A DNA stretch of 64,000 nucleotides from assembly GCA_026417795.1 (NCBI GenBank), contig JAOACP010000009.1, positions 1-64,000 of the forward strand, written 5' to 3'. Every line of letters starts with the position of its first letter. Positions within the stretch are counted from its first letter, which is position 1. The notes beneath the pieces are model-generated. The model was not told the origin of the DNA and searched no databases. It saw nothing but the letters and a program-made list of their open reading frames with translations. The translations under genes and the position numbers were made by a program. The DNA is from Thermanaerothrix sp. (GTDB taxonomy: Bacteria > Synergistota > Synergistia > Synergistales > Synergistaceae). This document shows, in pieces, positions 30,726 through 45,526 of this stretch.

Positions 30726-30735
30726 GGGGCACCTC

Positions 30736-30754
30736 TTTTTCCATTTTGGAAAAA
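30736..30754. promoter_or_regulatory. Probable IclR operator
   Basis: TTTTTCCA-TTT-TGGAAAAA, a perfect 8-bp inverted repeat about 10 bases before the IclR start and downstream of the promoter. IclR-family operators often contain TTCCA/TGGAA arms, so autoregulation is plausible. Confidence 0.6.
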
Positions 30755-30783
30755 TATTTTCTTTTTTGGATAATCATGGCTGG

Positions 30784-30812
30784 ATACTACAAAGGGTTCC
30801 GCACAATGTCAA
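30784..30812 (-). promoter_or_regulatory. Promoter of the IclR-M20-M20-AbgT cluster
   Basis: On the minus strand a perfect TTGACA (30812-30807), a 17-bp spacer, TAGTAT (30789-30784). Confidence 0.75.
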
Positions 30813-30872
30813 GCGCAATAATCACAATGATTCGAATTCATAGATTCAAATAAATTTGCCAAACACCAAACA

Positions 30873-30922
30873 AAGGGGGGAGAGCGGCAGGGATCCCAAT
30901 CTTCCCCACGGCTCTCCCCTTT
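30873..30922 (-). terminator. Terminator of the metH-metF operon
   Basis: AAAGGGG(GG)AGAGC / GCTCTCCCCTTT stem with a roughly 25-base loop, about 80 bases past the metF stop; T-rich on the minus strand. Confidence 0.6.
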
Positions 30923-30998
30923 AAAAAAACATTCTTCGAATGCTAAATACCAGTCCCCGCCCCCTACGGGAGCTTCCTTCAAGACCGGACAGAGGACC

Positions 30999-31883
30999 TT
31001 AACTTCCCCCGCCCCTGCCGCTCACCAAGCCTATGTTGTTCATTATCCGCCGGGTGGTCTCCGGGCGGTTCATGGTGTATATGTGGACCCCATCCACCCC
31101 AAAGGCCAAAAGATCCACTATCTGCTCCGTGGCGTAGGCCACCCCAGCCTCCGCAAGGGCCGCGGGATCATCGGCGTAACGGGCCACCATCCGGGTGAAC
31201 TTGGGCGGGAAGGACACACCGCACAGCGAAACTATCCGCTCCACCTGCTTACCGTTCAGCACTGGGAAAACCCCAGCCAACACCGGCACATCTATCCCAA
31301 TCCCCCGGGCCTTCTCAAGGAAACGGTAAAAAAGCTCGTTGTCGAAGAAGAGCTGGGTCACCAAAAAGTCCACCCCAGCGTCCACCTTCTCCTTAAGGCG
31401 CCTTAAGTCCGACTCCAGGTCCTCCGCCTCCACGTGCCCCTCCGGGTACGCCGCGGCGGCTATGCACACCTCGTCCCCAAAGGCGAGCCTAAGGTGCCTT
31501 ATGAGGTCCACCGCGTGGAGAAACGCGGGCTCCGACGGGACCGACCCGTCCCTTGGAGGATCCCCCCGCATGGCCAGGAGGTTGTACACCCCCTCATACA
31601 TGAGGTCCTCCACCATCTCGTCCACCTCCACCGGACCGTGGCACAAACCGGTGCAGTGGGCCATCACCTCAAGGCCGAAACGATTCTTGACCGTCGACGC
31701 TATCTCCAGCGTGGAGTCCCGGGTGCTCCCTCCGGCCCCGTAGGTGACGCTCACGAAGTCCGGCCCAAGGTCCCTTATGGCCCCCAGGGTCCTGTAAACC
31801 TCCTCCAGCGGCACCTCCCGCCTGGGGGGGAATATCTCGAAGGAAACCACCGGACGGCGCCCAAACAGCTCCTTTATGAACAT
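30999..31883 (-). CDS. metF: Methylenetetrahydrofolate reductase
   Basis: FAD-linked TIM-barrel enzyme reducing 5,10-methylene-THF to 5-methyl-THF; 294 residues. Motifs: VSFEIFPPRR at the N-terminus, FVSVTYGAGGSTRD, NLLAMRGDPPRDG, FLVTQLFFDNE and GVHIYTMNRPETTRRI near the end. It overlaps the end of metH by 10 bp, so it is translationally coupled to its product's consumer, and the pair closes the methyl-transfer step to methionine. Confidence 0.95.
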   Translation of the reverse strand: MFIKELFGRRPVVSFEIFPPRREVPLEEVYRTLGAIRDLGPDFVSVTYGAGGSTRDSTLEIASTVKNRFGLEVMAHCTGLCHGPVEVDEMVEDLMYEGVYNLLAMRGDPPRDGSVPSEPAFLHAVDLIRHLRLAFGDEVCIAAAAYPEGHVEAEDLESDLRRLKEKVDAGVDFLVTQLFFDNELFYRFLEKARGIGIDVPVLAGVFPVLNGKQVERIVSLCGVSFPPKFTRMVARYADDPAALAEAGVAYATEQIVDLLAFGVDGVHIYTMNRPETTRRIMNNIGLVSGRGGGS

Positions 31884-34378
31884 CCCAATCCCTCCCAGTC
31901 GCAGCCAAGACCCTTCATGAGCCTCTCCACCAGCTTCGCCGCCCCCACGGCGTCATAGGACATCCCGTCCGCCCCTATGGACTTAGCGAAAGAAGGGCTC
32001 ACCGCCGCGCCGCCCACTATCACCTTAAAGCCGCAACCCCTCCGCCGGGCCTCCTCTATCACGTCCCTCATCCGGGGCACCGTGCTGGTCATGAGGGCCG
32101 ACAGACCCACCACATGGGCCCCCTCCCTCTGGGCGGCCTCGATGATCCGCTCCGCCTTAACGTCCTTTCCAAGGTCCACCACCCGGTAGCCGTGGCTCTT
32201 CAAAACCGCCGCCACCACGTTCTTCCCAAGGTCGTGAAGGTCCCCCTCCACCGTGGCCAACACCACCGTGCCACGGCTGGCGCTTGAACCCTCCCGGGAC
32301 ATCTCCTCCTCCGCCAGGGCGCACACCGCCGACGCCGCCTGGGCGGACTGGATGAGCTGGGGCAGGAAGAACTCCCCGGTCTCGTAACGGCGCCCCACCT
32401 CCTCCAGGGCGGGCACAAGGTGAGCGGAGATGACCCCAAGGGGCCCCTCCGAGGCCATAAGGCGCCGCCCCTCCATCAAAGCCCCCTCCTCGTCCCCCTC
32501 GAGGACCTTTTCCGCCAGCGATGAAAGGGCGGAAGAAGGCCCCAAATCCCCTCCGCGGGGAGCCTTCGGGACCCCGCGGTCTACTTCGGCGCAGGCGCCC
32601 CCAGCCTTAACCTCCGTCCAGGAAGGGGCGAAGGCGGTGTAGATCGAAAGCCCTTCGTCCCTTCCCCTCAGGGCGTCGCAGGCCTTGACCACCCCCATCA
32701 GCTCCCGGTCCAGGGGGTTGCATATCACCATGTCCAAACCCGACCCCATGGCCATGGCCAGGAACGATCGGTTCAAAAGCCCCCTGGCAGGAAGCCCGTG
32801 GGACACGTTGCTTATCCCAAGGGACGTAAGCCCCCCAAGGGCCCCCACCTCCCGCACCGCCCGCAAGGTCTCCTGACCGTTGCGGATGGAGGCCCCCAGC
32901 GTGAGCGTAAGCGGATCAAAAACTATCCGGCTCGGCGGAAGCCCCTCCTCAAGGGCCGCCTCAAAGACCCTCTCCGCTATCCGGGCCCGCTCAAGTCCGT
33001 CCTCCAGTATCCCCCTCTGGTCTATGAGCAGCACCGCCAAGGCCGCCCCGTACCTGAGGGCAAGCCGCATCCCAAGCCTCATCTGCTCATCCTTGGCGGC
33101 CACGGAGTTTATGAGCGGCACCCCCGCCGCCTCCCTAAGCCCCGCCTCCAGGACCTTGAGGTCGTCGCTGTCCAGCGAAAGGGGAAGGTGCGACACACCC
33201 TCCACCGCCCAAACCGCCTCCCTCATGGCCCTTACCTGGTCCACCTCCGGCAGCCCCACGTTCACGTCTATGACCGCCGCTCCAGCAAGGGTCTGGGCCC
33301 TGGCCTCGTCCTTCACCGCCCCGTAGCGGTAGGCCGCCACCTGCTCCCTTATGGGGGACTTCCGAGACACGTTTATCCTCTCCCCTATCACCCCAAGGGG
33401 AAGGCCCGGGCCGAAGCAAAAGACCTTGCTCCTGCCGCACAACCGAAGGACGGCGGCATCGGGCCTGGGACTCAACGTCCTTCCCTCCGTAAGTCCCCTT
33501 AAGGCCCTTATGTGCTCCGGGGTGGTGCCGCAGCAGCCCCCTACCACCGCCGCCCCGGCGTCCAAAAGCCCAGCGCAGCGGGCGGCGAACTCCGACGGCC
33601 CAAGGTAGTCACCAGCGGAGGGCACCCCCGCGTTGGGGTAAACCCACACCGGAAGCCCCGACGCCTCCGCAAGGCGCCGCACCACCTCCACGTATCCCTC
33701 GGGCCCAAGGCCGCAGTTGGCCCCAACCCCTACGGCCCCAACCGCTTGAGCCCAAACCGCCGCTGCCTCCGGGGAGGTGCCGGTGACGGTCCTTCCGTCC
33801 CGGTCGAAGGTGAAGCTCACCACGAAGGGCATGTCCTCCCGGACCCGCTTCACCGCCTCCACCGCCGCCTTTGCCTCCTTGATGTCCAGCATGGTCTCGA
33901 TCAGGATGAGATCCACGCCGCCCTTCACAAGCCCCCGCACCTGGGGCTCGAAGGACCTTACGGCCTCTTCAAAGTCCAGCTCCCCCAAGGGCATCAGCAT
34001 CTCCCCGCAGGGGCCCACGGACCCCGCCACCAGGCCCCCCCCCGCCTGCCGGGCCAGCTCCGCCGCCCTTAGGGCCAGCTCCTCCGCCATGCCCCCCAAA
34101 CCCTTCATGGAGAGCTTCCTAAGGGAACCGCCGAAGCTGTTGGTCTCTATCACGGCGGCCCCGGCGTCCACGTAGCTCCTGTGGACATCCAGAACCGCCT
34201 TAGGCATGTGAAGGCACATCTCCTCCGGAAGCATCGGGGGATGCCATCCCCTCTCCGCCAACTGGGTCCCCATGCCCCCGTCCAGCACCAACGGGGACCT
34301 CAAACTCCGGAAGAACTCCCGCACACGCCCTTGATCCAACAAGACCACACTCCCTTCCGTATAACCGCCCCGGTTCAT
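31874..34378 (-). CDS. metH: Cobalamin-dependent methionine synthase lacking the activation domain
   Basis: Homocysteine methyltransferase of about 834 residues. Domains: homocysteine/zinc barrel (1-300; ligands in GANCGLGP and VGGCCGTTPEHI), pterin-binding barrel (about 320-590; VIGERINVSRK, VIDVNVG), cobalamin cap helices (about 630-710) and a B12-binding Rossmann domain (about 710-834; GDLHDLGKN with the cobalt His, then VVGLSALMTSTVP). It stops after the B12 domain, so the C-terminal SAM-dependent reactivation domain of E. coli MetH (about 1227 aa) is missing. ATG at 34378 follows GGAGGAGG. The 54 codons upstream in frame span a terminator and are not coding. Confidence 0.94.
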   Translation of the reverse strand: MNRGGYTEGSVVLLDQGRVREFFRSLRSPLVLDGGMGTQLAERGWHPPMLPEEMCLHMPKAVLDVHRSYVDAGAAVIETNSFGGSLRKLSMKGLGGMAEELALRAAELARQAGGGLVAGSVGPCGEMLMPLGELDFEEAVRSFEPQVRGLVKGGVDLILIETMLDIKEAKAAVEAVKRVREDMPFVVSFTFDRDGRTVTGTSPEAAAVWAQAVGAVGVGANCGLGPEGYVEVVRRLAEASGLPVWVYPNAGVPSAGDYLGPSEFAARCAGLLDAGAAVVGGCCGTTPEHIRALRGLTEGRTLSPRPDAAVLRLCGRSKVFCFGPGLPLGVIGERINVSRKSPIREQVAAYRYGAVKDEARAQTLAGAAVIDVNVGLPEVDQVRAMREAVWAVEGVSHLPLSLDSDDLKVLEAGLREAAGVPLINSVAAKDEQMRLGMRLALRYGAALAVLLIDQRGILEDGLERARIAERVFEAALEEGLPPSRIVFDPLTLTLGASIRNGQETLRAVREVGALGGLTSLGISNVSHGLPARGLLNRSFLAMAMGSGLDMVICNPLDRELMGVVKACDALRGRDEGLSIYTAFAPSWTEVKAGGACAEVDRGVPKAPRGGDLGPSSALSSLAEKVLEGDEEGALMEGRRLMASEGPLGVISAHLVPALEEVGRRYETGEFFLPQLIQSAQAASAVCALAEEEMSREGSSASRGTVVLATVEGDLHDLGKNVVAAVLKSHGYRVVDLGKDVKAERIIEAAQREGAHVVGLSALMTSTVPRMRDVIEEARRRGCGFKVIVGGAAVSPSFAKSIGADGMSYDAVGAAKLVERLMKGLGCDWEGLGCS

Positions 34379-34428
34379 CTTGCCTCCTCCGGGGCCATGG
34401 TTTTTAAAGAGGGATACTATAGCAAAAA

Positions 34429-34448
34429 CCCCCCTCAAACAAGGGGGG
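34429..34448 (-). terminator. Terminator of the two-component operon
   Basis: CCCCCC, eight bases, GGGGGG, then TTTTT on the minus strand, about 20 bases after the response-regulator stop. TATAGT, a possible metH -10 box, follows within eight bases, so terminator and metH promoter overlap. Confidence 0.8.
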
Positions 34449-34469
34449 CGGGGAACGGGTTCTATCATG

Positions 34470-35087
34470 TCACCTGCCGCGATACACCAGCCTGGGACGC
34501 CCTGGGCGGCCGTCGCCTGGAGACTCCTCCCGCTCCGCAATGCCCCTTGATACCAGGTACTCCAGATACCTATGGGCGGTCACATAGGCCACCCCAAGCC
34601 TGCTTCCCATCTCGTCGGCGGTGATTCCCTTGTCCCCGGCCTCCTCAAGGATACCCACCGCCCGTCTTAACTTATCCTCCGAAAGCCCCTTCCGGGTCTG
34701 CCTCCATGCCGCCTTAAGGGACAGGGACAACCGTCTTAAAAGGTTTATCCTGGCGCAGAAGTCCGCGAGCCTTATGGGCTTGGTGATGAAGTCCTCCGCC
34801 CCTTCCCCCAGCAGCAGCCTTGCGGTCTTTGGGTTCTGCTCCACCGTCAGCATGGCTATGACCGCGTCGGGGGACAGGGCCTTGGCCTGCCTCAACACGT
34901 TAAGACCCGACATCCTGGGCAGGTGGTAGTCCAAAAGATATATGTCCTTCGCTCCGTCCTTAACCCAGCCCAAGAACCGCTCCATCGACGTGGTGGTCTC
35001 CATGTCCCACCCCTGGGTCTTGGCCATGGCGGTAAGGGTGAAGAGTATGGCCTCGTCGTCGTCAAGGGCCCCTATCTTCAACGTCAA
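34470..35087 (-). CDS. Response regulator, CitB/DcuR type
   Basis: 205 residues: a receiver domain (1-120; ALDDDEAIL acidic pocket, phospho-Asp in YLLDYHLPRMSG near 52, Lys in FITKPIRL) and a C-terminal helix-turn-helix (GITADEMGSRLGVAYVTAHRYLEYLVSRG) like those of citrate/C4-dicarboxylate response regulators. It overlaps the sensor kinase by 4 bp. Targets are unknown. Confidence 0.9.
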   Translation of the reverse strand: MTLKIGALDDDEAILFTLTAMAKTQGWDMETTTSMERFLGWVKDGAKDIYLLDYHLPRMSGLNVLRQAKALSPDAVIAMLTVEQNPKTARLLLGEGAEDFITKPIRLADFCARINLLRRLSLSLKAAWRQTRKGLSEDKLRRAVGILEEAGDKGITADEMGSRLGVAYVTAHRYLEYLVSRGIAEREESPGDGRPGRPRLVYRGR

Positions 35088-36397
35088 CCGGGAACTACCT
35101 CCTGCTCATTTAGCACCAACAGCGACACCTCACAACCCCCGTCCCCGGGGTTTCGTATCTCAACGGCTCCCCCATGGGAAGCGGCGGTGTCCTCCACGAA
35201 GGTAAGGCCCGTGCCGAAGGACCCGCCGCTGAACCCTGGGCCCCGGTCTCGAACCAAAAATTCAACTCCCCCGGGGACCCTTCTGCAGGACAGCGTAACC
35301 GTCCCTCCCCACCGGGCGCCGTTGTCCACCAGGTTTGCCAAGGCCCTGGATAGCCTCATCACGTTGGCCCTTATGACCGTCCCCGCCACGTCCTCCGGCA
35401 AGCTCTCCTCCACCCTCTCCCGGTAGGGCATGGGACTCAGCTGAGAAAGGCAAAGATCCACCACCTCTCGCACCGTCACCTCCCGCGACGCCTCGCCGGA
35501 CAGTATCTCCTGGATCATCCGGTTCATCCCCTCCGCCGCCTCCATGACCAAACGGAGCCTCCTGTCGGAGGGGCTCTCGGAAAGGAGCACGTCCACAAGG
35601 CCGGTTATCACCGTAAGGGGACGGCGAAGGTCGTGGACCAGGTGCTGTATCTCCCGGAAGACCCGGGCCCTCCTGCCCTCCTCCCTCATCTGGGCCAGCA
35701 TCCTCTCCTGGCTTCGAATGAGCCGAAACTGCCTCTCCTGCAGCACCTTTCCCATGAGTATGGACGCCCCGGAGAGGGCCCCCGTAAGCGAAAGGGCAAA
35801 GCCCAAAAACCCTATCCAGTCGAAAAGGGCCTCCTCCCCCATGGCGGAGGCCAGACCCTTCACCGCCATGGACAGCTCCCCGCCCCCAAAACCGTAGGAC
35901 GTGAGGGAAGGGCAAAGGTCCAGCCACTGGAGGGACAGCACCACAAGCCCCATCACCGCCACCCTGTCCAGGGTGCCCCTAAGGGGCCCGGTGAGATACC
36001 TCACCAAAAGCACCGACGAAAGGGACACCACCGCCCCGGTCCCAAAGTGCAGCCCTGAACCCCCCGTAACCGCCCAGGACAGGCCGTAGGACAAGGGTAT
36101 CCCCGCCAGGATGACGGCAGACCCCACCCAACCCCTTATGCCCCCAGGGAACGCCTCTCCCAAGGAGAGCCACCCCCAGTAGAGCATGAGGGCCCTTATG
36201 GAGTTCATGGCCGCCAGCAGAAGGCCCGCCTTCACCAGGTCCCCCGCCAAAAGGCCCGAGGGGGCGTTAAGGGATCTCACCACCAAAACTCCCCCCGCCC
36301 GGAGGGAGCTTGACCAGACCGCCAACAGCGCCGCGCCAAGGCACAGGGACTCGATACGGCTCAAAGGCCTCCAACGGATCTTTCCATAGGATCTCAT
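35084..36397 (-). CDS. Membrane sensor histidine kinase
   Basis: 437 residues: about seven N-terminal membrane helices (up to residue 220), a coiled linker, HisKA with phospho-His in VHDLRRPLTVITGL (near 247), and HATPase with N-box LANLVDNGARWGG, DRGPGFSG and GTGLTFVEDTAASHGG. No periplasmic sensor domain is evident, so the signal may be sensed in the membrane. It is first in a two-gene operon with the CitB-type regulator. Confidence 0.9.
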   Translation of the reverse strand: MRSYGKIRWRPLSRIESLCLGAALLAVWSSSLRAGGVLVVRSLNAPSGLLAGDLVKAGLLLAAMNSIRALMLYWGWLSLGEAFPGGIRGWVGSAVILAGIPLSYGLSWAVTGGSGLHFGTGAVVSLSSVLLVRYLTGPLRGTLDRVAVMGLVVLSLQWLDLCPSLTSYGFGGGELSMAVKGLASAMGEEALFDWIGFLGFALSLTGALSGASILMGKVLQERQFRLIRSQERMLAQMREEGRRARVFREIQHLVHDLRRPLTVITGLVDVLLSESPSDRRLRLVMEAAEGMNRMIQEILSGEASREVTVREVVDLCLSQLSPMPYRERVEESLPEDVAGTVIRANVMRLSRALANLVDNGARWGGTVTLSCRRVPGGVEFLVRDRGPGFSGGSFGTGLTFVEDTAASHGGAVEIRNPGDGGCEVSLLVLNEQEVVPG

Positions 36398-36420
36398 CGC
36401 ACCATTCTAGACCGGAAAAG

Positions 36421-36440
36421 GGGGGCCCCGAAAGGCCCCC
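36421..36440 (-). terminator. Terminator of the DUF6305-GGT operon
   Basis: GGGGGCC / GGCCCCC stem with a six-base loop, followed by CTTTT on the minus strand, about 30 bases after the GGT stop. Confidence 0.7.
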
Positions 36441-36467
36441 GATTTCACATCCTGCTGTGAACGGTGT

Positions 36468-38189
36468 CTAAAAACCCACCGGCACCCCAAGACGGCGGGA
36501 GTCCGCGCCGCCGTCAAGGCCCTTATCGGCGCCGAACAGGATGCCCTGGGCGGTGCCGAAGGTGCCGGACTTGGGTTTTACCTCCACGTCGTGGCCCTTA
36601 AGCCGCAGAAGGTCCAGCGTTAAGGGGTCTATCCCCTCCTCGGCGTAAAGCTTCCCCGCCTTCCCGCCGGACACGAGGTTGTATATCCTTGGCTGCTCTA
36701 TGGCCTCGTCCATGGACATGCCAAAGTCCACGGCGTTCATTATGATCTGGGTCACCGCGGTTATTATCCTGGTGGCCCCCGCGGCCCCCACCGCCATGAA
36801 GGGCTTGCCCTCCGGGGTCAGTATCACCGTGGGGGACATGGAAGAAAGGGGCCTCTTGCGGGGCTCCGGGGCGTTCACGCTGTTGGGGTCCTGGGAGAAA
36901 TCGTCCATCTGGTCGTTCAGCACGATCCCGTAGCCGGGCACCATGACGCCGGACCCGAAGAAGTAGTTTATGGTGTTGGTGGCCGCCACGATGTTGCCCT
37001 CTTTGTCCGCCACCGAGAAGCTGGTGGTGCTCACCCTCTCGTTCACCTCGCCGCCCACGTAGGAGGACGCCTTGGGCTCGAAGTCCCAGGGGTTCCCGAA
37101 GGGCACGTCCTTCATGACCGACTTGAGGTCTATACGGCCCGCCTGCCTTTGGGCATACCCCTTGCTGGTAAGCCCCTCTATGGGAACCTTCACGAAGGCG
37201 GTGTCCGCCATGTACCTCCCCCGGTCCGCGTAAACCAGCTTCATGGCCTCCGCCATGACGTTGAGGTAGGAGAAGGAGTTGTGCTTGAAATCCCTCATGG
37301 GGAAGTTCTCGAGGATGTTGAGGAGCTCCACCACGTGGGTGCCTCCGCTGGAAGCGGGGGGAGTGGAGTATATCCGATAGCCCCTGTAGGTGCCGGACAC
37401 CGGCTTCCGCTCCAGAACTCGGTAGGACTTAAGATCCTCCATGGTCATATTACCGCCGCTGCGGTTAACCGCCTGGACCAACGCCTCGCCGATGGGGCCG
37501 TTGTAAAAGGCGTCCTTCCCCTCCGAAGCCAAGACGCGAAGGGTCCTGGCAAGGTCCTTCTGCACGCAGAGCTCCCCTGCGGGCATGGGAAGGCCGTCCT
37601 TGAAGAAGGGCACCGAAAGGGGGTCGTTATAGGCCTGAAGCTTCTCGTACTCGTCGGTTATTATCTGGTTCTGCATGGGATGGAGCTTGAAGCCCTTCTC
37701 CGCCAGCTCTATGGCGGGCTGGGCCACCTGGGCGAAAGACATGGTGCCGTACTTCTCCAACACGTGGAACATCCCCGCCACAAAGCCCGGCACCGCCACC
37801 GCCTTGCCGCCGTTTACGGACCACTTGGCCTTCTTGGCCTCCTCGGAGGCGAACATGTCCTTAGCGGCCGAAGCGGGGGCGGTCTCCCGGTAGTCCACCA
37901 CCACCACCTTGCCGTCGGCGGTCCTTATGGTCATGAAACCGCCTCCACCGATGCCGGAGGCGTTGGGCTCCACCACGTTGAGCGCCAGGGCCACCGCCAC
38001 CGCCGCGTCCACCGCGTTGCCCCCCTGCTTCAGTATCTGAACCCCCGCCCGGGAGGCCAGCTCGTGGGCGCTGGACACCATCCCGTTGGGGGCGTAGACG
38101 TCCCCGGAAGACGCAAATCCGGGGCCCACAAGACCGCATGCCAACAACACCGCCAGCGCCATGGCGCCTATCTTAAGAATGTTCCTCAC
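36468..38189 (-). CDS. ggt: Gamma-glutamyltransferase (exported)
   Basis: Ntn hydrolase that cleaves gamma-glutamyl bonds (glutathione, gamma-Glu peptides); 573 residues. It has an N-terminal signal peptide (MRNILKIGAMALAVLLACG). The precursor self-cleaves before the catalytic Thr in STTSFSVADKEGN (near 355-360). NASGIGGGGFM, DDFSQDP, RKRPLSSMSPT and GAAGATRIITAV match substrate-binding segments. GTG start 7 bases after AGGAGGG. Last gene of a five-gene operon, so extracytoplasmic release of glutamate or of a gamma-glutamyl substrate probably feeds the co-encoded permease. Confidence 0.95.
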   Translation of the reverse strand: MRNILKIGAMALAVLLACGLVGPGFASSGDVYAPNGMVSSAHELASRAGVQILKQGGNAVDAAVAVALALNVVEPNASGIGGGGFMTIRTADGKVVVVDYRETAPASAAKDMFASEEAKKAKWSVNGGKAVAVPGFVAGMFHVLEKYGTMSFAQVAQPAIELAEKGFKLHPMQNQIITDEYEKLQAYNDPLSVPFFKDGLPMPAGELCVQKDLARTLRVLASEGKDAFYNGPIGEALVQAVNRSGGNMTMEDLKSYRVLERKPVSGTYRGYRIYSTPPASSGGTHVVELLNILENFPMRDFKHNSFSYLNVMAEAMKLVYADRGRYMADTAFVKVPIEGLTSKGYAQRQAGRIDLKSVMKDVPFGNPWDFEPKASSYVGGEVNERVSTTSFSVADKEGNIVAATNTINYFFGSGVMVPGYGIVLNDQMDDFSQDPNSVNAPEPRKRPLSSMSPTVILTPEGKPFMAVGAAGATRIITAVTQIIMNAVDFGMSMDEAIEQPRIYNLVSGGKAGKLYAEEGIDPLTLDLLRLKGHDVEVKPKSGTFGTAQGILFGADKGLDGGADSRRLGVPVGF

Positions 38190-38230
38190 ATGAATCCCTC
38201 CTTACCTGCCAGCCAGATCCCCGAAGACCA

Positions 38231-39370
38231 TCAGGGACCGCTCTTAAGGAACGACCCTACCCCGCCGGATACTATCTCCTCGTAGCTTGGGATCCCCTCT
38301 ATCACTACCCCCCTCTCGGGATTGAAATCCGAAAAGGCGCCCACCACCGCCATCACCGTGGCCAGCTGCCGCCCCACCCTCTCCTCTATGGGCTTCCCCT
38401 TGGAGTCGTAGGGCACGAAAAGCCGCCCAAGCCCCGACGCCTTAAGATAAGCCTTATCAAGGCCGGTCTTCACCAGCCCCTCGTCGGTGCGGCCCCGGAG
38501 GCGCCCTTGGCTTGGGTTGGCCACCTCGATAAGGAAGGGCATGGCCCCGGCCCCATCCCCCCACTCCCGGTGGCTTAACCCCCGCAGCTTCCTGGGGGAG
38601 GGCTCAAGCCTCATGTCGATGCCGGACAGCTTGAGCTCCATCACCGCCGCGGCGGCCACCTCCATGGACTTCTCATGGGCCACCACGGCGTCCACCACCG
38701 GGTACTCCGGCGAAGCCTCGTGCAGGTCAAAGGCCACGTCGGCCCTCTGCCTCCTAAGAAGCTCCATGATGGCGTAGGCCAGCTTCTCAGACCAGGTCCC
38801 ATCGGGAGAACCCGGATAGGCGCGGTTCAAGTTCCTGCTCTCGTTGCCCGAAAGGGCCTGGCCTGAGGCTCGGTGTATGTAAACGTCCGGCACCGGCCAC
38901 ATGAGAAGGGGGCTGATGTCCCTGGCGCCGTACCTGAAGCTCCTGTAAGACCCATCCCGGAGCTTGAAGGATATGCGGTTAGGGGAGGCCTCCTGGGGCT
39001 GGTTGTGGGTGAATCCCGAGGCGTTGCCGAAGGGGATCACCACAAGACGACCTCGCTTCACCCTGGCGTTCTCCAAAAGCACCACCGCCGAGAGGTAACC
39101 GGCGGGCTCGTTCGGGTGGGTGCCCCCCAACACGAACACGGTGCCGCCCTTCTCCGGCCCCTCCTGCACGTAAACCTCCGTGTCCACCCCGCTCCCCCTT
39201 ATGGAGGGCAGGTACTTGGACAGCATCTCAACCCTGAACCCCGGGGCGGGGAACACCTTGTCCCTTTCCGCCATGGCCCTGAAGTCAAGGGAAGCCCAAA
39301 AGCACAGGACCCCCGCCAGGGCCAGCATGGCCAAGCCGCTGATCTTGTTGGCCTTGATCGCGTTCATCAT
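38231..39370 (-). CDS. Succinylglutamate desuccinylase/aspartoacylase-like zinc hydrolase
   Basis: 379-residue M14-like enzyme of the AstE/ASPA fold. An N-terminal hydrophobic helix (about 10-29) suggests export or membrane anchoring. Zinc and catalytic motifs: GGTHPNEPAG (His and Glu ligands), ESRNLNRAYPGSPDG, FDLHEASPEYP (His ligand) and PFLIEVANPSQGR. AstE-family enzymes hydrolyse N-acyl amino acids; its operon with GGT and a permease suggests an N-acyl or gamma-linked glutamate/aspartate substrate (inference). Confidence 0.85.
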   Translation of the reverse strand: MMNAIKANKISGLAMLALAGVLCFWASLDFRAMAERDKVFPAPGFRVEMLSKYLPSIRGSGVDTEVYVQEGPEKGGTVFVLGGTHPNEPAGYLSAVVLLENARVKRGRLVVIPFGNASGFTHNQPQEASPNRISFKLRDGSYRSFRYGARDISPLLMWPVPDVYIHRASGQALSGNESRNLNRAYPGSPDGTWSEKLAYAIMELLRRQRADVAFDLHEASPEYPVVDAVVAHEKSMEVAAAAVMELKLSGIDMRLEPSPRKLRGLSHREWGDGAGAMPFLIEVANPSQGRLRGRTDEGLVKTGLDKAYLKASGLGRLFVPYDSKGKPIEERVGRQLATVMAVVGAFSDFNPERGVVIEGIPSYEEIVSGGVGSFLKSGP

Positions 39371-39378
39371 GGCTCCAC

Positions 39379-39522
39379 CTACTTGACCCTAAGGAGCCTT
39401 AAGAGCAGCGGTATTGCCACCATGGCGGCGGTGGCCTGAGCCATGAGGTCCTTTTCCCTAATGCAGAAATCCACCACCAGGAACAACACCATGGCAACTA
39501 TGAAGAGATAGATCACCGTCAA
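39379..39522 (-). CDS. 46-residue membrane protein (putative small permease partner)
   Basis: TTG start at 39522, preceded by AGGAGGGAG at proper spacing. The product begins MTVIYLFIVAMVLFLVVDF, has a short CIREKDL loop, then a second hydrophobic helix ending LLLRLLRVK. Two membrane spans in 46 residues, placed 13 bp after a DctM-like permease, suggest a mini small-subunit. Typical TRAP DctQ has four helices, so this is at most a reduced analogue. Confidence 0.65.
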   Translation of the reverse strand: MTVIYLFIVAMVLFLVVDFCIREKDLMAQATAAMVAIPLLLRLLRVK

Positions 39523-39535
39523 GGAAGCTCCCTCC

Positions 39536-40825
39536 TCACCGTAAAAGGGCCGCCAAGGGGTTGGCCGCCGCCACCATGCCAAGCCCCCAGAGGACCGTAA
39601 GGGCCGCGGGGAACACGCAGTGCCTCAACACCCTGAAGTAGTCCTCCTCCCCCGCCACCTGGGCGGCGAACATCCCCGCAAGGGCCGTGGGGGGCATGAG
39701 ATCCCCAAGGCCCGATAGCAGCGCCAGGGCGCTGGACACCACTATCTGGTCCTTTCCCAGGAGGGCCAGCACGAAGGGCACCCCCAGGACCGACGCAGCA
39801 CCGAAGGCGGACACGGCGCCGAACAGGGGGATGCTGAGCCCCATCATGGGATAAAGGAGCGCCACAGGCACCGCAAGGCACGAGACCACCACGAACCCCC
39901 TAACCCCCGTAAGGGTCATCATCTGTATGAACATACCCACCCCCATTAGGATGCCCAGCACCGGCATGGCGTCCCGCACCGCCTCCCGGGCCACCGAAAG
40001 GGGGTTCATCCTACGGCCCACCATAAAGGCCGAGGAGGCGGCCAGGAGGAACTGAAGGGGCATCCCAAGGCTCACCTTGCCCTTGAACAGGGCCTCCAAC
40101 GTCATAAGACCCGCCAGCACCGCGAAGGGAAGGAAAAGGGACGGCCTCAAGGGCACCTCTTCCATCTTTTTGAGCCTTGCCTCCAGCTCTGAAGCGTCGG
40201 AACGGTTGCCCTTAAGGTGAGGCAGAAGCAGCCACAGGGAGGAGATGACCGCCAGCGGGACGGTGGCGAAGAGCAGGGGCCCCGTAAAGCCCACGTAGGG
40301 CATGTCTATGCCGCCGCCTATTATCATCACCGGGATGTCTATGGGGGGCGCGATCATGCCGTATATGGCCCCCATGGCTATGGCGGCGGCCCCCTTCGCC
40401 CTGGGGACCCCCATGCTCACCAGGACCGGGGCCACCAGGGCCCCGGTGGTGAGGCACCCGGCGGTGGACGAACCGGTTATCATCCCCGGCAGCATGATCA
40501 GCAGGGTCACCGCGATGCAAAGCAGCACCGGGTGGTCCTTGAAGCGCCGCACCGTCCATGCCGCCAGAGAGTCCAAAAGGCCGCACCCCTGGATGGACTT
40601 CATGAACGTCATGGCGCAGGCGATTATGAGCACCGTGTCCAGGTAGCCGAACATCCCCTCCACCAGGTGCCTCACGGGAAATCCGAAGCCGCCGAAAAGG
40701 GCCCCCGCCACGGAGGCCAAAGCCATGGCGATGGATATGGGGAGCTTCAAGCGGAAGGCCCCGGCGGCGAAGGTCCCCACCATCAGGACCGCCAGGGCCC
40801 CTTCGGGCCAAAACCAGCTTCCCAT
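39536..40825 (-). CDS. TRAP DctM-like large permease (ion transporter superfamily)
   Basis: 429 residues with about 12 helices. GMITGSSTAGCLTTGALVAPVLVSMGVPRAKGAAAIAMG, split by loops, and YGMIAPPIDIPVMI resemble the DctM/IT-superfamily pore loops, with an internal repeat in SGLGDLMPPTALAGMFAAQVAG. The start lies 4 bp after the DUF6305 gene. No DctP-type binding protein is adjacent; the exported DUF6305 protein may take that role. Confidence 0.82.
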   Translation of the reverse strand: MGSWFWPEGALAVLMVGTFAAGAFRLKLPISIAMALASVAGALFGGFGFPVRHLVEGMFGYLDTVLIIACAMTFMKSIQGCGLLDSLAAWTVRRFKDHPVLLCIAVTLLIMLPGMITGSSTAGCLTTGALVAPVLVSMGVPRAKGAAAIAMGAIYGMIAPPIDIPVMIIGGGIDMPYVGFTGPLLFATVPLAVISSLWLLLPHLKGNRSDASELEARLKKMEEVPLRPSLFLPFAVLAGLMTLEALFKGKVSLGMPLQFLLAASSAFMVGRRMNPLSVAREAVRDAMPVLGILMGVGMFIQMMTLTGVRGFVVVSCLAVPVALLYPMMGLSIPLFGAVSAFGAASVLGVPFVLALLGKDQIVVSSALALLSGLGDLMPPTALAGMFAAQVAGEEDYFRVLRHCVFPAALTVLWGLGMVAAANPLAALLR

Positions 40826-40829
40826 GGGA

Positions 40830-41405
40830 CTACTTGGACACCCCGAAGGAGGTCAGCTGGCTCAGCATGGGGCCCAAAACCGCCTGGATGGACTCCACCT
40901 CCGCCACCTTTACCCCCTTAGGAGCCAGCTTGGTCACAAGACCGTCGTCGTTGCCCCCCTTCACCACTATCACCCCGTCCGCCTTCGGGAACGCCGCCGC
41001 CATGAGGTAGTCCGTGAGCTCACCCCTGCGGCCCTTGCCGCCCACGTGCATCACCAGCACCTTCACCCCCTTGGACCTGGCGGCGTCCAAAAGCTGCTTG
41101 ACCCGGTCCCGCTCCTGCTCCTTGTCGATCCCCGCGGCCCCAAGGCCCTTCATGCTGCCCCCCACCACGGCGATCAGGACCTTGTGCTCCTTCGAGAGGT
41201 CCTGGGGTTTCATCATGGCATCGTACTTGCAATCCAAACCAGCCTTCTTGAGCAGCACCCGCACCATCATGGCGTCCGGGCTCTGACCCACCGAGGTCAC
41301 CGCCACCTGGGACGCCATGGCGGAAGCCGGGGCAAGGCACAAGCCAAGGACCAGCGAAAAGGCCAGCCCCCACAAAACGAGCGCGCTTCTTCCGTAACTA
41401 CGCAA
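40830..41405 (-). CDS. DUF6305 family exported protein
   Basis: About 191 residues. TTG at 41405 follows GGGAGG by 9 bases (the frame is open to 41429). A signal peptide (ALVLWGLAFSLVLGLCLAPASAMA) precedes a compact alpha/beta domain: VAVTSVGQSPDAMMVRVLL, KVLIAVVGGSMKGLG, VKVLVMHVGGKGRRGELTD and DGVIVVKGGNDDG. The strand-helix alternation looks like a small Rossmann-like binding fold. It is first in the operon before the DctM-like permease, the place of a binding protein. No function is established as far as I know. Confidence 0.75.
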   Translation of the reverse strand: MRSYGRSALVLWGLAFSLVLGLCLAPASAMASQVAVTSVGQSPDAMMVRVLLKKAGLDCKYDAMMKPQDLSKEHKVLIAVVGGSMKGLGAAGIDKEQERDRVKQLLDAARSKGVKVLVMHVGGKGRRGELTDYLMAAAFPKADGVIVVKGGNDDGLVTKLAPKGVKVAEVESIQAVLGPMLSQLTSFGVSK

Positions 41406-41532
41406 AACAGACCGCCTCCCGGTTTTCAAGTAGAAGACCCACGAATAAGTGGATCTCCATTGAAAATACTAGGGGAGGCGGGTTCTACACAGAAGGAGTT
41501 AATATCTTTTTTCTATTCCCACCGGCGTCAAG

Positions 41533-42267
41533 CTAGGGACACAGCACCTCCCCACAGCCCCTAAGGAGCACCTTGTCGGTAAAAGGCTCGAAGAACCTGG
41601 TGCCGCAGCCCCGGGATACGATCCGCATGAGCGCCTGGGGGCTCTTCACTGACCGTCCCAGCACGACGCTGACCGATGTCCCCCGATAGACGTCCCAGGA
41701 AAGCGGCGCCGAGGGCCCCGCCACCCAGCAGTCCCGGGCCAGCTCAACAAACCGCTCCCAGGTGCCGTTCACTATGGAGCTGGCGGAGAGCACCACAAGG
41801 CCGCACCGGGACGCCATGTCCAAAGCCTCGCCGTCGCTTAACCCGCCTGGGCGGTTGTGGTCCGCGAAGAGCACCTTGGCCTCCAACGCCACCAGCTTGT
41901 TCTCCAGGGGCTCCATGCGCCCCACCATGAGGACCTCAATCCCGGGCTCCACCTTGGGGATGGCGCCGCTCAGCTCCCCCTCCACGGGCAAAAGGGCGTT
42001 GGCCACCGCAAGGGCCACCGCCCGGTCCCCGGGACACCGGGAGCCGCTGAGCCCAAGGGCCTCCGACGGGTCCACCGGAAGGGAGGACAAAAGCGCCGGG
42101 GACTCCTCCTCCGCCATCACCATGTCCGGGAAAGAATAGGCAAGCCCCACCCGGCCGTTGTCCAGAAGCGCCGCGGTGTACCTCACCCCCCGCACCACCT
42201 CAAGGACCATCCTTCCCGACGCCTTAGCGTAAGCCAGATCCCAAAGCCGCTTGTCAAGGCTGCCCAT
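41533..42267 (-). CDS. DUF364 (heavy-metal-chelation domain) family protein
   Basis: About 244 residues with an N-terminal DUF4213-like part (YTAALLDNGRVGLAYSFPD) and a Rossmann-like DUF364 part (IEVLMVGRMEPLENKL, GLVVLSASSIVNGTWERFVELARDC, DVYRGTSVSVVLGRS). These proteins have been linked to metal or corrinoid handling, but the activity is unknown. GTG 42276 overlaps the Shine-Dalgarno, while ATG 42267 is 8 bases after GGAGG and is chosen. Single gene with its own promoter. Confidence 0.75.
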   Translation of the reverse strand: MGSLDKRLWDLAYAKASGRMVLEVVRGVRYTAALLDNGRVGLAYSFPDMVMAEEESPALLSSLPVDPSEALGLSGSRCPGDRAVALAVANALLPVEGELSGAIPKVEPGIEVLMVGRMEPLENKLVALEAKVLFADHNRPGGLSDGEALDMASRCGLVVLSASSIVNGTWERFVELARDCWVAGPSAPLSWDVYRGTSVSVVLGRSVKSPQALMRIVSRGCGTRFFEPFTDKVLLRGCGEVLCP

Positions 42268-42342
42268 AAACCTCACCTCCGGGAAAATCCTGTCTCAAAC
42301 CTTAACCTACCACTACACCGGGGACACGGGACTCCATGGTTC

Positions 42343-42371
42343 ATTATAGGGCACCCCAGGCATAATGTTCA
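42343..42371 (-). promoter_or_regulatory. Promoter of the DUF364 gene
   Basis: On the minus strand TGAACA (42371-42366), 17 bp, perfect TATAAT (42348-42343). Confidence 0.6.
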
Positions 42372-42424
42372 GTCTATTTGACAGAATGATCTAACCTCAA
42401 ATCTTGTTAATGGAGGTGCAGCCA

Positions 42425-43021
42425 ATGGAGCTTACCCAATCCTCCCCTTCGGGACAGGCCATGTCCGCCCTCGGGCGGATAGAGTTGGGGCTGGAGGACC
42501 TGGAGGGGGCCGTGGAGGTGTTGGCCTCGTCCCTGTCTTCGATAGAGGAGGAGTCCTCCCAGGTGGGCAAGGCGGGGGAGTCCGTGGACCTCCACGCCCG
42601 GGAGCTGCTCAAGGAGCTGGACGAAAGCGCCCGGGAGGCCAAGACGCCCATGGAGCAGATGAGGCAGGCCCTTGAGATCGGCCTTAGGGTTCAGGAGGAG
42701 GCCCAGAGGGACCGTACTATGCTGGCCCACACGGTGGAAGCGGTGAGGGCCATGGTCCGGTCCGCGGAGTCCGTGGCGGACTCCATAGGGCGCATAACCC
42801 AGGTGCTGGGGAACATAGCGGACATAACCACCCACATAACCGCCATAGCCAAGCAGACCAAGCTGCTCTCCCTCAACGCCTCCATAGGGGCGGAACGGGC
42901 TGGAGAGCACGGCAGGGGTTTCGCGGTGGTGGCGGAGGAGGTGCGCAAGCTGGCCGCCAGGACCAGCGAGGCGGCATCCAAGATAAGCGACCTCGCGTCC
43001 TCCAGCAGGGCAATAGGGTAG
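42425..43021 (+). CDS. Amino-terminal half: soluble chemoreceptor signalling domain
   Basis: 198 residues before the TAG. Helical throughout. The conserved receptor tip is present with small variations ([40 protein letters not shown]), so it could still contact CheW/CheA, but the return helix is cut short. No membrane or HAMP segment is visible. Confidence 0.7.
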
Positions 43022-43090
43022 GAGGCGTCGGAGAACATCGACCGGGCCCTCAACCTATCCAGGAACGCCTCGGACCGGGCGGAGGCCACC

Positions 43091-44077
43091 ATGGAGGACC
43101 TTAAGGACATGTTCGACTCCCTTTCCCACATAGGCTCCTCCCTCCGGCTGGGGGCGGAAGGGGCGGCAAAACAGCACGAAAGGGCCGAGAGGATGTCTAA
43201 GAAGGCCCGGATCATGGCGGACAGGGCGGAAGAGCAGGCGGGGCGGCTCAAGAGGGTGGACGGCAAGATCCGGGAGAACCGGATCATCATGGACTCGATA
43301 CCCATAAGCCTTCGGGAAGCGTCGGAGGCCCTGTGGGGGTTCAGCGACGCCGCCCAAGAGGCGGACTTGGGGAATCCTTCGATCGGGGCCATAAAGGAAC
43401 GGGGGGAGCTCCTGCTGGGCATAGAGACCGACGACTTCGGGAAGTTCCACTGGTGGAGGGAAGGCTCCCCAAAGGGGCTGGACGTGGAGTTGGGGGAGGC
43501 CATAGCCCGCCGCCTTGGGGTCCGCCTTCGCTGGGTGCCAATGGCATGGGGAAGCGGAGAGCCGGGCACCATAACCGGCACCTGGAACCGGGGAAGCTTC
43601 GAGGGCTTTGACTTCCTCTGCTCCACCGCCACGAAGCTGCCGGAGCGGCTTAAGTTCTGCGCCTTCTCCAAAAGCTACTTCCGGAGCGGCCAGAGCGTGT
43701 TGGTGCCCAAGGACTCGCCGGTGGACTCCCTGTTGGACCTCAAGGGGCTTAAGGTGGCGGTGACCCGGGGGGCCACCAGCGAGAAGGCCGCCCGGGAGAA
43801 GCTCAAGGGCTGTGAGATCGTGCCCTTCCCAACCGCGGTAGATGAGGCCAAGGCCCTTCAAAGCGGCAAGGTGGACGCCCTGGCGGTGGACCGGCCGGTG
43901 GCCTGGGCGTTCCTCGAGCAACACCAGGAATGGCGGGAGCTTAACGTGTCGCTTTCGGTGGAGAACTTCGGGCTGGTGATGCCCAAGACCGTCTCCTTGG
44001 CCCTTAAGGCCCTGGTGGACAGGGTGGTCCTTGAGGAGCGGGACAGCCTGTTCAGGAAGTACTTCAAGAACCCATAG
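43091..44077 (+). CDS. Carboxy-terminal half: coiled coil plus SBP_bac_3-type domain
   Basis: 328 residues from an in-frame ATG that follows GGAGGCCACC, so internal restart is possible. The first 110 residues continue the helical bundle. From about 115 on, a periplasmic-binding-protein-like fold appears: GELLLGIETDDFGKF, GLDVELGEAIARRLGVRLRW, WNRGSFEGFDFLCS, DLKGLKVAVTRGATSEK, GKVDALAVDRPV. There is no export signal, so it would sample cytoplasmic ligand if made this way. Confidence 0.6.
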   Translation: MEDLKDMFDSLSHIGSSLRLGAEGAAKQHERAERMSKKARIMADRAEEQAGRLKRVDGKIRENRIIMDSIPISLREASEALWGFSDAAQEADLGNPSIGAIKERGELLLGIETDDFGKFHWWREGSPKGLDVELGEAIARRLGVRLRWVPMAWGSGEPGTITGTWNRGSFEGFDFLCSTATKLPERLKFCAFSKSYFRSGQSVLVPKDSPVDSLLDLKGLKVAVTRGATSEKAAREKLKGCEIVPFPTAVDEAKALQSGKVDALAVDRPVAWAFLEQHQEWRELNVSLSVENFGLVMPKTVSLALKALVDRVVLEERDSLFRKYFKNP

Positions 44078-44094
44078 GGGCGCGCGTTAGGGGC

Positions 44095-45270
44095 TCATGA
44101 GAGCACCGCTCGAGCTATCCTAAGCGCCGATCCGCTGTTAAGGCGCACCATATCCTTGAAGGCCTCCAGCATGGGGGCGGCCCTTTCGGGGTCCCTCAAA
44201 AGCTGCAGCGCCCCCATGGCAAGGTCGACGGGCTCCAAGGGCCCCACCAGCTCCGGCACCACCATGCGTCCTGCAAGGCGGTTAGGAAGGCTCACGAAGG
44301 GAAGCTTCCTAACCATGCGGGACACCATGGCGCTCTTGAGGTGTCTTAGGCCCCACAGGCCCCAGGGGATCAACCCCAGAAGGCCGTCCATGGGGATCTC
44401 CCAGGCCCGGTTCAGCGGCAGCGCCACCAGAAGGGGCACCCCAAGGGCCGCGGCCTGCAGGTTGTTTGTGCCCGGGAACGCCACCCACAGGGCCGGGTTT
44501 TCGGGCACGGAGCCGTCCCAGGTGATGCGCACCCTAAAGACACCGGCGGGGCCCTTTACCTCCAGCACCGACGGCCTTTGGTCCCTGTCGGGGACCCCAA
44601 GGGCCCTCATCACCGGGTAAAGGGCCTTAGGGTCTATGGTGGGGGCCATGGGGAACAGGGGGGACAGGTCCGGCATGGACTTCAGCATCTCGCCCGCCGC
44701 CTTGACCATGAAGGGCAGGCCGTGCAGGGCCTCAAAGGGGCGGCTGCCGCACATGAACACCACCGGCACCCCCTCAAGGGCCCCGCAAGAGGGGGGAACC
44801 GCGTCGAACACCGGCCAGCCCACGGGCACGGCGCAGCCCCCCTGGGCTATCACGGCGGATTCCATCTCGAGGTTCGGCACCAGGTGCTTCCTCACCCCTC
44901 TTACCCTACGGCCTCGCCCCACGTAGGCGTCCACGGGACAGCCCATGAGGCGGCCTAAGAGGACCGCCAGCTTCACGTCCCCCCCGAGCCTAAGGAGCCT
45001 AACCTCCCCCCTTCCGCCCCTCCAGGGTCGCTCCCTAAGGAACTTGGCCAAGGGGTAAACCCGGTCCGCCACCCGCCTGGCGGCGTCGAGCTCTCCGCCG
45101 CTGGCGTACTGGCACGGGGGGATCACCGCGGTCAACGAGACATCCCCGAGGGACCGCAGCGCATTGGCCACCGGGGCGGCCCATCCCATGAGCTCCCCCG
45201 GGGAGTTCACCAGCATGTGGACATCGAAGCTCAACGGAGCACCACCATTCATGATAAAATAAGCGTTCAA
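44095..45270 (-). CDS. Lipid-A-disaccharide synthase-like (LpxB-related) protein
   Basis: 391 residues with a GT-B glycosyltransferase layout. The N-terminal MLVNSPGELMGWAAPVANAL resembles LpxB's GEASGD region, and the C-terminal AFPGTNNLQAAALGVPLLVALPLN aligns with the donor-site PGTxxLE segment. A basic, hydrophobic stretch (LIPWGLWGLRHLK) suggests membrane contact. Key LpxB residues are not all conserved, so the acceptor is uncertain. The start may be internal (TTG or ATG around codons 13-19). Confidence 0.6.
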   Translation of the reverse strand: MNAYFIMNGGAPLSFDVHMLVNSPGELMGWAAPVANALRSLGDVSLTAVIPPCQYASGGELDAARRVADRVYPLAKFLRERPWRGGRGEVRLLRLGGDVKLAVLLGRLMGCPVDAYVGRGRRVRGVRKHLVPNLEMESAVIAQGGCAVPVGWPVFDAVPPSCGALEGVPVVFMCGSRPFEALHGLPFMVKAAGEMLKSMPDLSPLFPMAPTIDPKALYPVMRALGVPDRDQRPSVLEVKGPAGVFRVRITWDGSVPENPALWVAFPGTNNLQAAALGVPLLVALPLNRAWEIPMDGLLGLIPWGLWGLRHLKSAMVSRMVRKLPFVSLPNRLAGRMVVPELVGPLEPVDLAMGALQLLRDPERAAPMLEAFKDMVRLNSGSALRIARAVLS

Positions 45271-45281
45271 CGATAATGTAG

Positions 45282-45287
45282 ATTATA
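45282..45287 (-). promoter_or_regulatory. -10 box upstream of the LpxB-like gene
   Basis: Perfect TATAAT on the minus strand 12 bases before the first possible start. The -35 (CTGAAA, 17 bp upstream) is a four-of-six match. Confidence 0.45.
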
Positions 45288-45310
45288 GGCCAACGGGAGG
45301 CGTCTTTCAG

Positions 45311-45526
45311 GTGTTCCTCGTCTTAAGTTCCAGGGAAGTGGTTTGGGCCCCCAACGTGGTGGCCCTCATAAGGAGTCCCGGCGGCGCCGCGGTGCACCTT
45401 AAGGACGGCGGGGTTTTGGAGAGTCCTCTTGCCCCCGCTTCGATCTTAAAGCGCTCCTCGGAGCTGGGACTTTACCCTGGGAAGCGGGAAGGCGCCTCGC
45501 ATGGGAAGAAGGAGAGGGAGCAATGA
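45311..45526 (+). CDS. RemB/YaaB-like small protein (DUF370)
   Basis: 71 residues. GTG start about 10 bases after GGGAGG. MFLVLSSREVVWAPNVVALI and KDGGVLESPLAPASILKR resemble the YaaB/RemB proteins that precede gyrB in Bacillus and many other bacteria. The stop overlaps the gyrB start (ATGA). The basic tail (PGKREGASHGKKEREQ) is not conserved in the family. RemA-type proteins are DNA-binding activators of biofilm genes; the function here is inferred only from position and likeness. Confidence 0.6.
   Translation: MFLVLSSREVVWAPNVVALIRSPGGAAVHLKDGGVLESPLAPASILKRSSELGLYPGKREGASHGKKEREQ

What the first reader, a model, noticed from the sequence alone, without database searches (positions are those of the whole stretch)
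36468..41405. Undescribed glutamyl-compound uptake and processing operon
Five genes in one operon: exported DUF6305 protein, DctM-like permease, 46-aa two-helix membrane protein, AstE/aspartoacylase-like hydrolase with an N-terminal helix, and exported gamma-glutamyltransferase. Typical TRAP DctP and DctQ are missing; DUF6305 and the 46-aa protein occupy their places. This could be a reduced TRAP-like importer coupled to extracytoplasmic trimming of gamma-glutamyl or N-acyl amino acids.
Basis: partly seen in the sequence, partly recalled or inferred. Interest (0 to 1): 0.7.

Follow-up and report, generated by a model that had tools for sequence, protein, structure and literature searches.

The report
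Poly-gamma-glutamate recycling and uptake operon
This operon encodes an undescribed set of a transporter, its small partner proteins and two exported hydrolases that travels with poly-gamma-glutamate synthesis genes in many bacterial phyla, and it probably breaks the polymer down outside the membrane and brings the glutamate back in.

Summary
The unit is longer: a histidine kinase and a response regulator follow, then a terminator-like hairpin. DUF6305, the permease, a conserved two-segment membrane protein (47 aa here) and the AstE-like hydrolase stay together in almost every locus examined: 60 Synergistota loci, and 26 of 26 longer loci from other phyla for the three large genes.

In Fusobacterium, Treponema, Clostridia, SAR324 and many Synergistota the same genes sit beside pgsB, pgsC and TIGR04332. 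DUF6305 and TIGR04332 co-occur across 185 Synergistota genomes (Fisher p = 4e-31), and 27 of 30 non-Synergistota DUF6305 genomes tested encode PgsC. The GGT lacks the lid loop, as in PGA-degrading Bacillus GGTs; the AstE-like protein keeps its zinc-site residues.

Most likely this is the depolymerisation and re-uptake module of a PGA system. It is not a TRAP transporter: DctP and DctQ are absent, and the permease model fits SLC13/ArsB structures as well as TRAP ones. In this genus pgsBC lies elsewhere and is divergent, so PGA as the polymer is inferred. Substrate, transport direction and DUF6305's role are untested.

The parts
40830..41405 (-). DUF6305 protein, exported, 191 aa; single-domain Rossmann-like alpha/beta fold; invariant T37 G40 Q41 G82 S84 G92 E98 R101 H120 G123 R127 D154
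   Evidence: PF19823 168 bits; alignment A1 of 48 homologues; AlphaFold2 pLDDT 93.6
39536..40825 (-). IT-superfamily (DctM/SLC13-like) elevator-type permease, 429 aa
   Evidence: PF06808 31 bits; AlphaFold2 pLDDT 92.7; Z 20-28.5 to NaS1, ArsB, NaDC3, INDY and TRAP-M over about 400 residues
39379..39522 (-). 47-aa membrane protein with two hydrophobic segments, conserved partner of the permease
   Evidence: sequence; homologues in 65/66 and 30/33 loci; two segments in all 95
38231..39370 (-). Membrane-anchored AstE/aspartoacylase-like (M14-type) zinc hydrolase, 379 aa; H85-x2-E88, N182-R183, H217, E282 conserved
   Evidence: PF24827 40 bits; invariant columns in A3; PDB profile hits to DoeB/AstE structures
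36468..38189 (-). Exported gamma-glutamyltransferase, nucleophile T388, lid loop absent
   Evidence: TIGR00066 542 bits; aligns without gap to B. subtilis GGT 3a75 where E. coli GGT has a 10-residue insertion
35084..36397 (-). Histidine kinase with N-terminal membrane part, probably the operon's regulator
   Evidence: HisKA and HATPase_c; HK/RR pair recurs beside the module
34470..35087 (-). Response regulator with receiver and MarR/DpiA-like winged helix; overlaps the kinase gene
   Evidence: PF00072 66 bits, PF12802 30 bits
34428..34449 (-). Terminator-like hairpin with T-run just after the response regulator
   Evidence: 9-pair stem followed by TTTTTG; pattern match only

Best explanation
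The operon is the degradation and re-uptake module of a poly-gamma-glutamate system. PgsB and PgsC, with the TIGR04332 protein, make and export gamma-linked glutamate chains. Outside the cytoplasmic membrane the anchored zinc hydrolase (AstE-like) and the lid-less GGT trim the chains to glutamate or short gamma-glutamyl pieces. An elevator-type IT-superfamily permease with its small two-segment subunit brings the product back in, helped by the exported DUF6305 protein, whose conserved His, Arg, Glu and Gln residues suggest binding of an anionic ligand. A two-component pair tunes expression. Shown: gene content, conservation, co-occurrence with PGA genes, conserved catalytic residues, missing lid loop, predicted folds. 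Inferred: that the polymer is PGA in this genus, that transport is inward, that the substrate is glutamate or oligo-gamma-glutamate, and what DUF6305 does.
For: Physical linkage: the module adjoins PgsB-PgsC-TIGR04332 in Synergistota, Fusobacterium, Cetobacterium, Treponema, Anaerotruncus, Pygmaiobacter, SAR324 and Dethiosulfatarculus; TIGR04332 lies within the fetched flank in 18 of 26 non-Synergistota loci of 15 kb or more. In F. gastrosuis and T. vincentii the neighbouring PgsB and PgsC score above the curated equivalog cut-offs (422 and 408 vs 222.7; 126 and 139 vs 96.45). Phyletic profile: 62 of 69 DUF6305 genomes also have TIGR04332 among 185 (p = 4e-31; by genus 33/1/2/26, p = 5e-14). 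PgsC is in 27 of 30 non-Synergistota DUF6305 genomes, against 1 of 14 controls. GGT lacks the lid loop, the feature that lets Bacillus GGTs use PGA (PMC8062742; PMC9073855). A known PGA hydrolase, PghP, is a zinc peptidase related to carboxypeptidase A (PMC4497714), the superfamily of AstE (own knowledge). The permease fold is that of small-anion transporters. Operon partners co-vary in divergence (r 0.65-0.97).
Against: In this genome pgsB, pgsC and the TIGR04332 gene are at another site (contigs C30/C28) and PgsB is very divergent (about 55 bits), so the polymer may not be PGA. Many Synergistota loci (40 of 60) show no TIGR04332 gene in the fetched flank. Type B loci carry a C69 peptidase instead of GGT, so GGT is not essential to the module. 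The AstE-like family is closest in PDB sequence to deacylases (DoeB), not to PghP. Near-obligate pairing with the synthase would also fit a role in export or chain release. DUF6305 has no informative structural match. The phyletic test is not corrected for phylogeny.
Confidence: 0.55

Rival explanations
1. The module serves PGA export, chain release or anchoring: DUF6305, permease and small protein help move or energise polymer export in place of PgsA, and the AstE-like protein and GGT cut or attach chains as CapD does.
For: Near-obligate pairing with the synthase; no PgsA/CapA homologue (PF09587) in this genome and none evident among the listed ORFs of the F. gastrosuis and T. vincentii operons; GGT-family CapD anchors PGA in B. 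anthracis (PMC4497714).
Against: The permease model is a small-anion elevator transporter, a fold with no known polymer substrate (own knowledge). CapA is reported dispensable in some bacteria (PMC5542703). The GGT here is closest to E. coli and Bacillus GGTs; CapD is a much weaker match.
Confidence: 0.22
2. A nutrient-scavenging importer for environmental gamma-glutamyl peptides (glutathione and the like) in amino-acid fermenters, with the PGA synthase only a frequent neighbour.
For: In the window's genus the operon is unlinked to pgsBC; type B operons use an exported C69 dipeptidase and a kinase with an SBP_bac_3 sensor, as expected for peptide or amino-acid sensing.
Against: 27 of 30 DUF6305 genomes outside the phylum encode PgsC, and presence tracks TIGR04332 by genus. 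A lid-less GGT favours polymers over glutathione.
Confidence: 0.15
3. A reduced TRAP transporter in which DUF6305 and the small protein directly replace DctP and DctQ.
For: Permease passes the DctM cut-off (31 vs 23.8 bits) and aligns over its length with TRAP-M structures; the operon pairs an exported protein, a large permease and a small membrane protein, conserved together.
Against: Equal or better structural match to NaS1, ArsB and NaDC3 (Z 26-28.5 vs 23.7 for SiaQM); DUF6305 models as one domain; the small protein has two short segments and no DctQ match.
Confidence: 0.08

Closest known systems
Bacillus PGA systems (pgsBCA with PgdS and GGT; capBCADE)
   Same: PgsB/PgsC synthase (in relatives directly adjacent), GGT-family enzyme without lid loop, extracytoplasmic hydrolase
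   Different: No PgsA/CapA hit in this genome; adds TIGR04332, DUF6305, IT permease, small membrane protein, AstE-like hydrolase; here split from pgsBC
TRAP transporters (DctPQM)
   Same: IT-superfamily large permease, an exported partner and a small membrane partner in one operon
   Different: No DctP or DctQ; permease equally close to SLC13/ArsB; exported partner models as a one-domain Rossmann-like fold
SLC13/DASS (INDY, NaDC) and ArsB-type transporters
   Same: Full-length fold match, Z 24-28.5
   Different: Not known to have a conserved 47-aa subunit and an exported DUF6305 partner (own knowledge); about 12-14% identity
AstE/aspartoacylase and DoeB deacylases; PghP PGA hydrolase
   Same: M14-type zinc motif HxxE...H plus N-R pair
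   Different: Membrane-anchored and predicted to face out; some relatives fall below the PF24827 cut-off
PGA capsule systems predicted by Rendueles et al. (PMC5542703)
   Same: That survey found PGA systems particularly abundant in Synergistetes and Fusobacteria
   Different: The passages read do not mention the permease, DUF6305, AstE-like or small-protein genes

Membership tests
TRAP transporter | DctP substrate-binding protein in the locus | tested here: not met
   No DctP within 11 kb of any of 29 DUF6305 loci in 14 genomes; none among the operon proteins
TRAP transporter | DctQ small subunit, separate or fused | tested here: not met
   No DctQ within 11 kb of the same loci; 47-aa protein has no DctQ match
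TRAP transporter | DctM-type large permease | tested here: inconclusive
   31 bits over a 23.8 cut-off, but structure equally like SLC13 and ArsB
IT superfamily (elevator-type ion transporters) | Full-length IT fold | tested here: met
   AlphaFold2 pLDDT 92.7; Z 20-28.5 over about 390-414 residues to IT members
Gamma-glutamyltransferase | Catalytic Thr at the small-chain start and family score | tested here: met
   T388; TIGR00066 542 bits vs 357.85
PGA-type (lid-less) GGT | Absence of the lid loop over the active site | tested here: met
   Gap-free alignment to 3a75 in this region, 10-residue insertion in E. coli 2dbu
AstE/aspartoacylase (M14-like) | Zinc ligands and catalytic residues | tested here: met
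   H85, E88, N182, R183, H217, E282 invariant in 32 homologues; zinc binding itself not tested
PGA synthesis system | PgsB/CapB and PgsC/CapC in the same operon | tested here: not met
   In this genome at another site; met in many relatives
PGA synthesis system | PgsB and PgsC present in the genome | tested here: inconclusive
   pgsB-like at C30:877-1878 scores 55 bits vs cut-off 222.7; pgsC-like next to it
PGA synthesis system | PgsA/CapA | tested here: not met
   PF09587: no match in the genome; accessory in some definitions
PGA synthesis system | Polymer produced and recycled | not testable with these tools
   Needs chemistry on cells

The most novel reading that the evidence does not exclude
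DUF6305, the permease and the small two-segment protein form a new kind of three-part secondary transporter: a single-domain Rossmann-like exported binding protein and a 47-aa subunit serving an IT-superfamily permease. It is dedicated to glutamate or oligo-gamma-glutamate and closes a self-contained PGA synthesis, depolymerisation and re-uptake cycle in at least eight phyla.
Probability: 0.35. Interest if true: 0.8.

Novelty: new variant of a known kind. Interest (0 to 1): 0.62.

Why it matters
PGA has been studied mostly in Bacillus, although a survey predicts it widely (PMC5542703). How diderm anaerobes release, trim and re-use it is not described in anything found here. This module would supply the missing hydrolases and importer, give a first role to DUF6305 and a tiny conserved membrane protein, and may define a new transporter architecture. 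It turns an unannotated gene family into a directly testable pathway in Synergistota, Fusobacteriota, Spirochaetota and Bacillota.

Tried and rejected
Sequence search of the PDB with the DUF6305 profile gave only noise. Foldseek and VIA-align for DUF6305 gave generic Rossmann-like matches (TIR, sugar kinases, receivers; best Z 10), no binding-protein family and nothing that stands out; a missing match is not evidence of a new fold. No paper in the library names DUF6305 or TIGR04332, and none held the terms for this gene combination. A genome-contig scan with the full DUF6305 alignment failed for lack of a conserved stretch; the type A subset worked, so type B relatives outside Synergistota are under-sampled. 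No Rfam family in 30000-46000. Cloacimonadota PGA operons were checked in the literature (PMC13082233): capB, capC, capA, with no mention of this module in the passages read. The permease-small protein complex could not be modelled with the tools offered.
Full report
OBSERVATION. Pfam and NCBIfam name DUF6305 (168 bits), a weak DctM-type permease (31 bits), an AstE_AspA catalytic domain (40 bits) and a gamma-glutamyltransferase (TIGR00066, 542 bits). The small ORF encodes 47 residues and starts with TTG after a GAGGAGG ribosome-binding site. Spacing between the five genes is 4 to 41 nt. A histidine kinase and a response regulator (overlapping by 4 nt) follow 70 nt after the GGT gene, and a 9-pair hairpin with a T-run ends the unit at 34449-34428. 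A promoter-like site exists at 42371-42343, upstream of a DUF364 gene; it is a pattern match only.

CONSERVATION OF THE MODULE. PF19823 occurs in 69 of 185 Synergistota genomes, often in several copies. In 60 DUF6305 loci fetched from these, the permease is present in 59 and the AstE-like gene in 57; the misses are short contigs or an orphan DUF6305 pair. There are two types. Type A (the window) has a GGT; type B has a permease about 33% identical to it and an exported C69 dipeptidase, so both types use an N-terminal-nucleophile hydrolase (that C69 is of this class is own knowledge). A scan of 84,980 species genomes then found DUF6305 in Fusobacteriaceae, Spirochaetota, Bacillota, Pseudomonadota, SAR324, Desulfobacterota, Atribacterota and others. 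In the 26 such loci of at least 15 kb, permease and AstE-like gene are present in all 26 and GGT in 25.

THE SMALL PROTEIN. A homologous short ORF lies between permease and AstE gene in 65 of 66 loci of the first set and, leaving out one spurious frame, 30 of 33 of the second. All 95 end in R-x4-K (the ending used to recognise them), have a proline before it and show two hydrophobic segments. This conservation across phyla shows that it is a real gene.

THE LINK TO POLY-GAMMA-GLUTAMATE. The recurring neighbours are a PgsB-like amide ligase, PgsC (PF14102) and TIGR04332, 'poly-gamma-glutamate system protein'. In F. gastrosuis and T. vincentii the order is GGT, DUF6305, permease, small protein, AstE-like, PgsB, PgsC, TIGR04332, and there PgsB and PgsC exceed their curated equivalog cut-offs. 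Across 185 Synergistota genomes 62 have both DUF6305 and TIGR04332, 7 only the first, 9 only the second, 107 neither; by genus 33, 1, 2, 26. These tests ignore tree structure, but the patchy presence of both within the window's own family argues for real coupling. Outside the phylum PgsC is encoded in 10 of 10 and 17 of 20 DUF6305 genomes, the 20 having been chosen mostly because the local contig showed none; 1 of 14 control genomes has it. In the window's genus the pgsBC-TIGR04332 genes are unlinked to this operon and PgsB is divergent. No PgsA/CapA was found in the genome.

THE ENZYMES. The GGT has its nucleophile at T388 and aligns without gap to B. subtilis GGT where E. coli GGT carries the lid loop. 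A review and mutant work tie absence of the lid to use of PGA (PMC8062742; PMC9073855). The AstE-like protein has one N-terminal hydrophobic segment with positive residues before it, so the catalytic part should face outwards (inference), and keeps H85-E88, N182-R183, H217 and E282 in all 32 homologues aligned, the zinc and carboxylate-binding residues expected for this superfamily (own knowledge). The phage PGA hydrolase PghP is a zinc enzyme related to carboxypeptidase A (PMC4497714).

THE TRANSPORTER. AlphaFold2 gives the permease with pLDDT 92.7. It matches NaS1 and ArsB (Z 28.5), NaDC3 (26.4), INDY (about 24) and TRAP SiaQM (23.7) over about 400 residues, so it is an IT-superfamily, elevator-type anion transporter but not specifically a TRAP subunit. 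DctP and DctQ exist elsewhere in these genomes but never within 11 kb of 29 DUF6305 loci. DUF6305 models as one alpha/beta domain with pLDDT 93.6; most of its invariant residues fall at or after the C-terminal ends of predicted strands, a usual place for a binding site. Pairwise distances of DUF6305, permease and AstE-like proteins correlate at 0.94-0.96 overall and 0.65-0.86 within type A, showing joint inheritance.

HOW IT PROBABLY WORKS. Polymer made by PgsBC is trimmed outside by the zinc hydrolase and GGT; glutamate or short gamma-glutamyl pieces are captured, perhaps with DUF6305, and imported by the permease with its small subunit; the two-component pair adjusts the system. The steps supported by data are the gene set, its coupling to PGA genes, and intact catalytic residues. 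Polymer identity in this genus, import rather than export, the substrate and the role of DUF6305 are inferences. The main rival is a role in PGA export or chain release in place of PgsA.

KNOWN OR NEW. PGA systems have been predicted in Synergistetes and Fusobacteria (PMC5542703) and reported in F. nucleatum (cited in PMC3815933). No text found describes the DUF6305, permease, small-protein and AstE-like module, within an open-access library only. It is filed as a new variant of a known kind: an uncharacterised transport and hydrolysis module of PGA systems.

Noticed in passing
42404-44077, + strand: A cytoplasmic-looking chemotaxis protein (MCP signalling domain plus C-terminal SBP_bac_3 domain) is cut by a single in-frame stop at 43019-43021; either a young pseudogene or a sequencing error.
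   Followed up: partly
41533-42276, - strand: DUF364/DUF4213 gene directly upstream and co-directional; adjacent also in the relatives L056 and L064 only.
   Followed up: partly
L041, L050, L051, L061 and other type B loci: Type B operons carry one or two exported C69 peptidases whose expected catalytic Cys follows the signal peptide directly, in place of GGT; some have a kinase with an SBP_bac_3 sensor.
   Followed up: partly
L108, L109 (genomes G013, G016): PgsB-PgsC-TIGR04332 retained next to a C69 remnant while the DUF6305 operon is gone: apparent operon erosion.
   Followed up: partly
L090:7735-9177; L117: Tandem or single orphan DUF6305 genes without a permease, in genomes with 6-7 DUF6305 copies.
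   Followed up: no
L073:8674-14569: Three AstE-like genes follow the permease and no GGT was found near.
   Followed up: no
L182, L183 (Lachnospiraceae): Three tandem DUF6305 genes and two tandem GGT genes precede one permease.
   Followed up: no
L175:14944-16014 and homologues: TIGR04332 'poly-gamma-glutamate system protein' has no Pfam domain and no specific function in its name, yet is the most constant neighbour of PgsC here.
   Followed up: no
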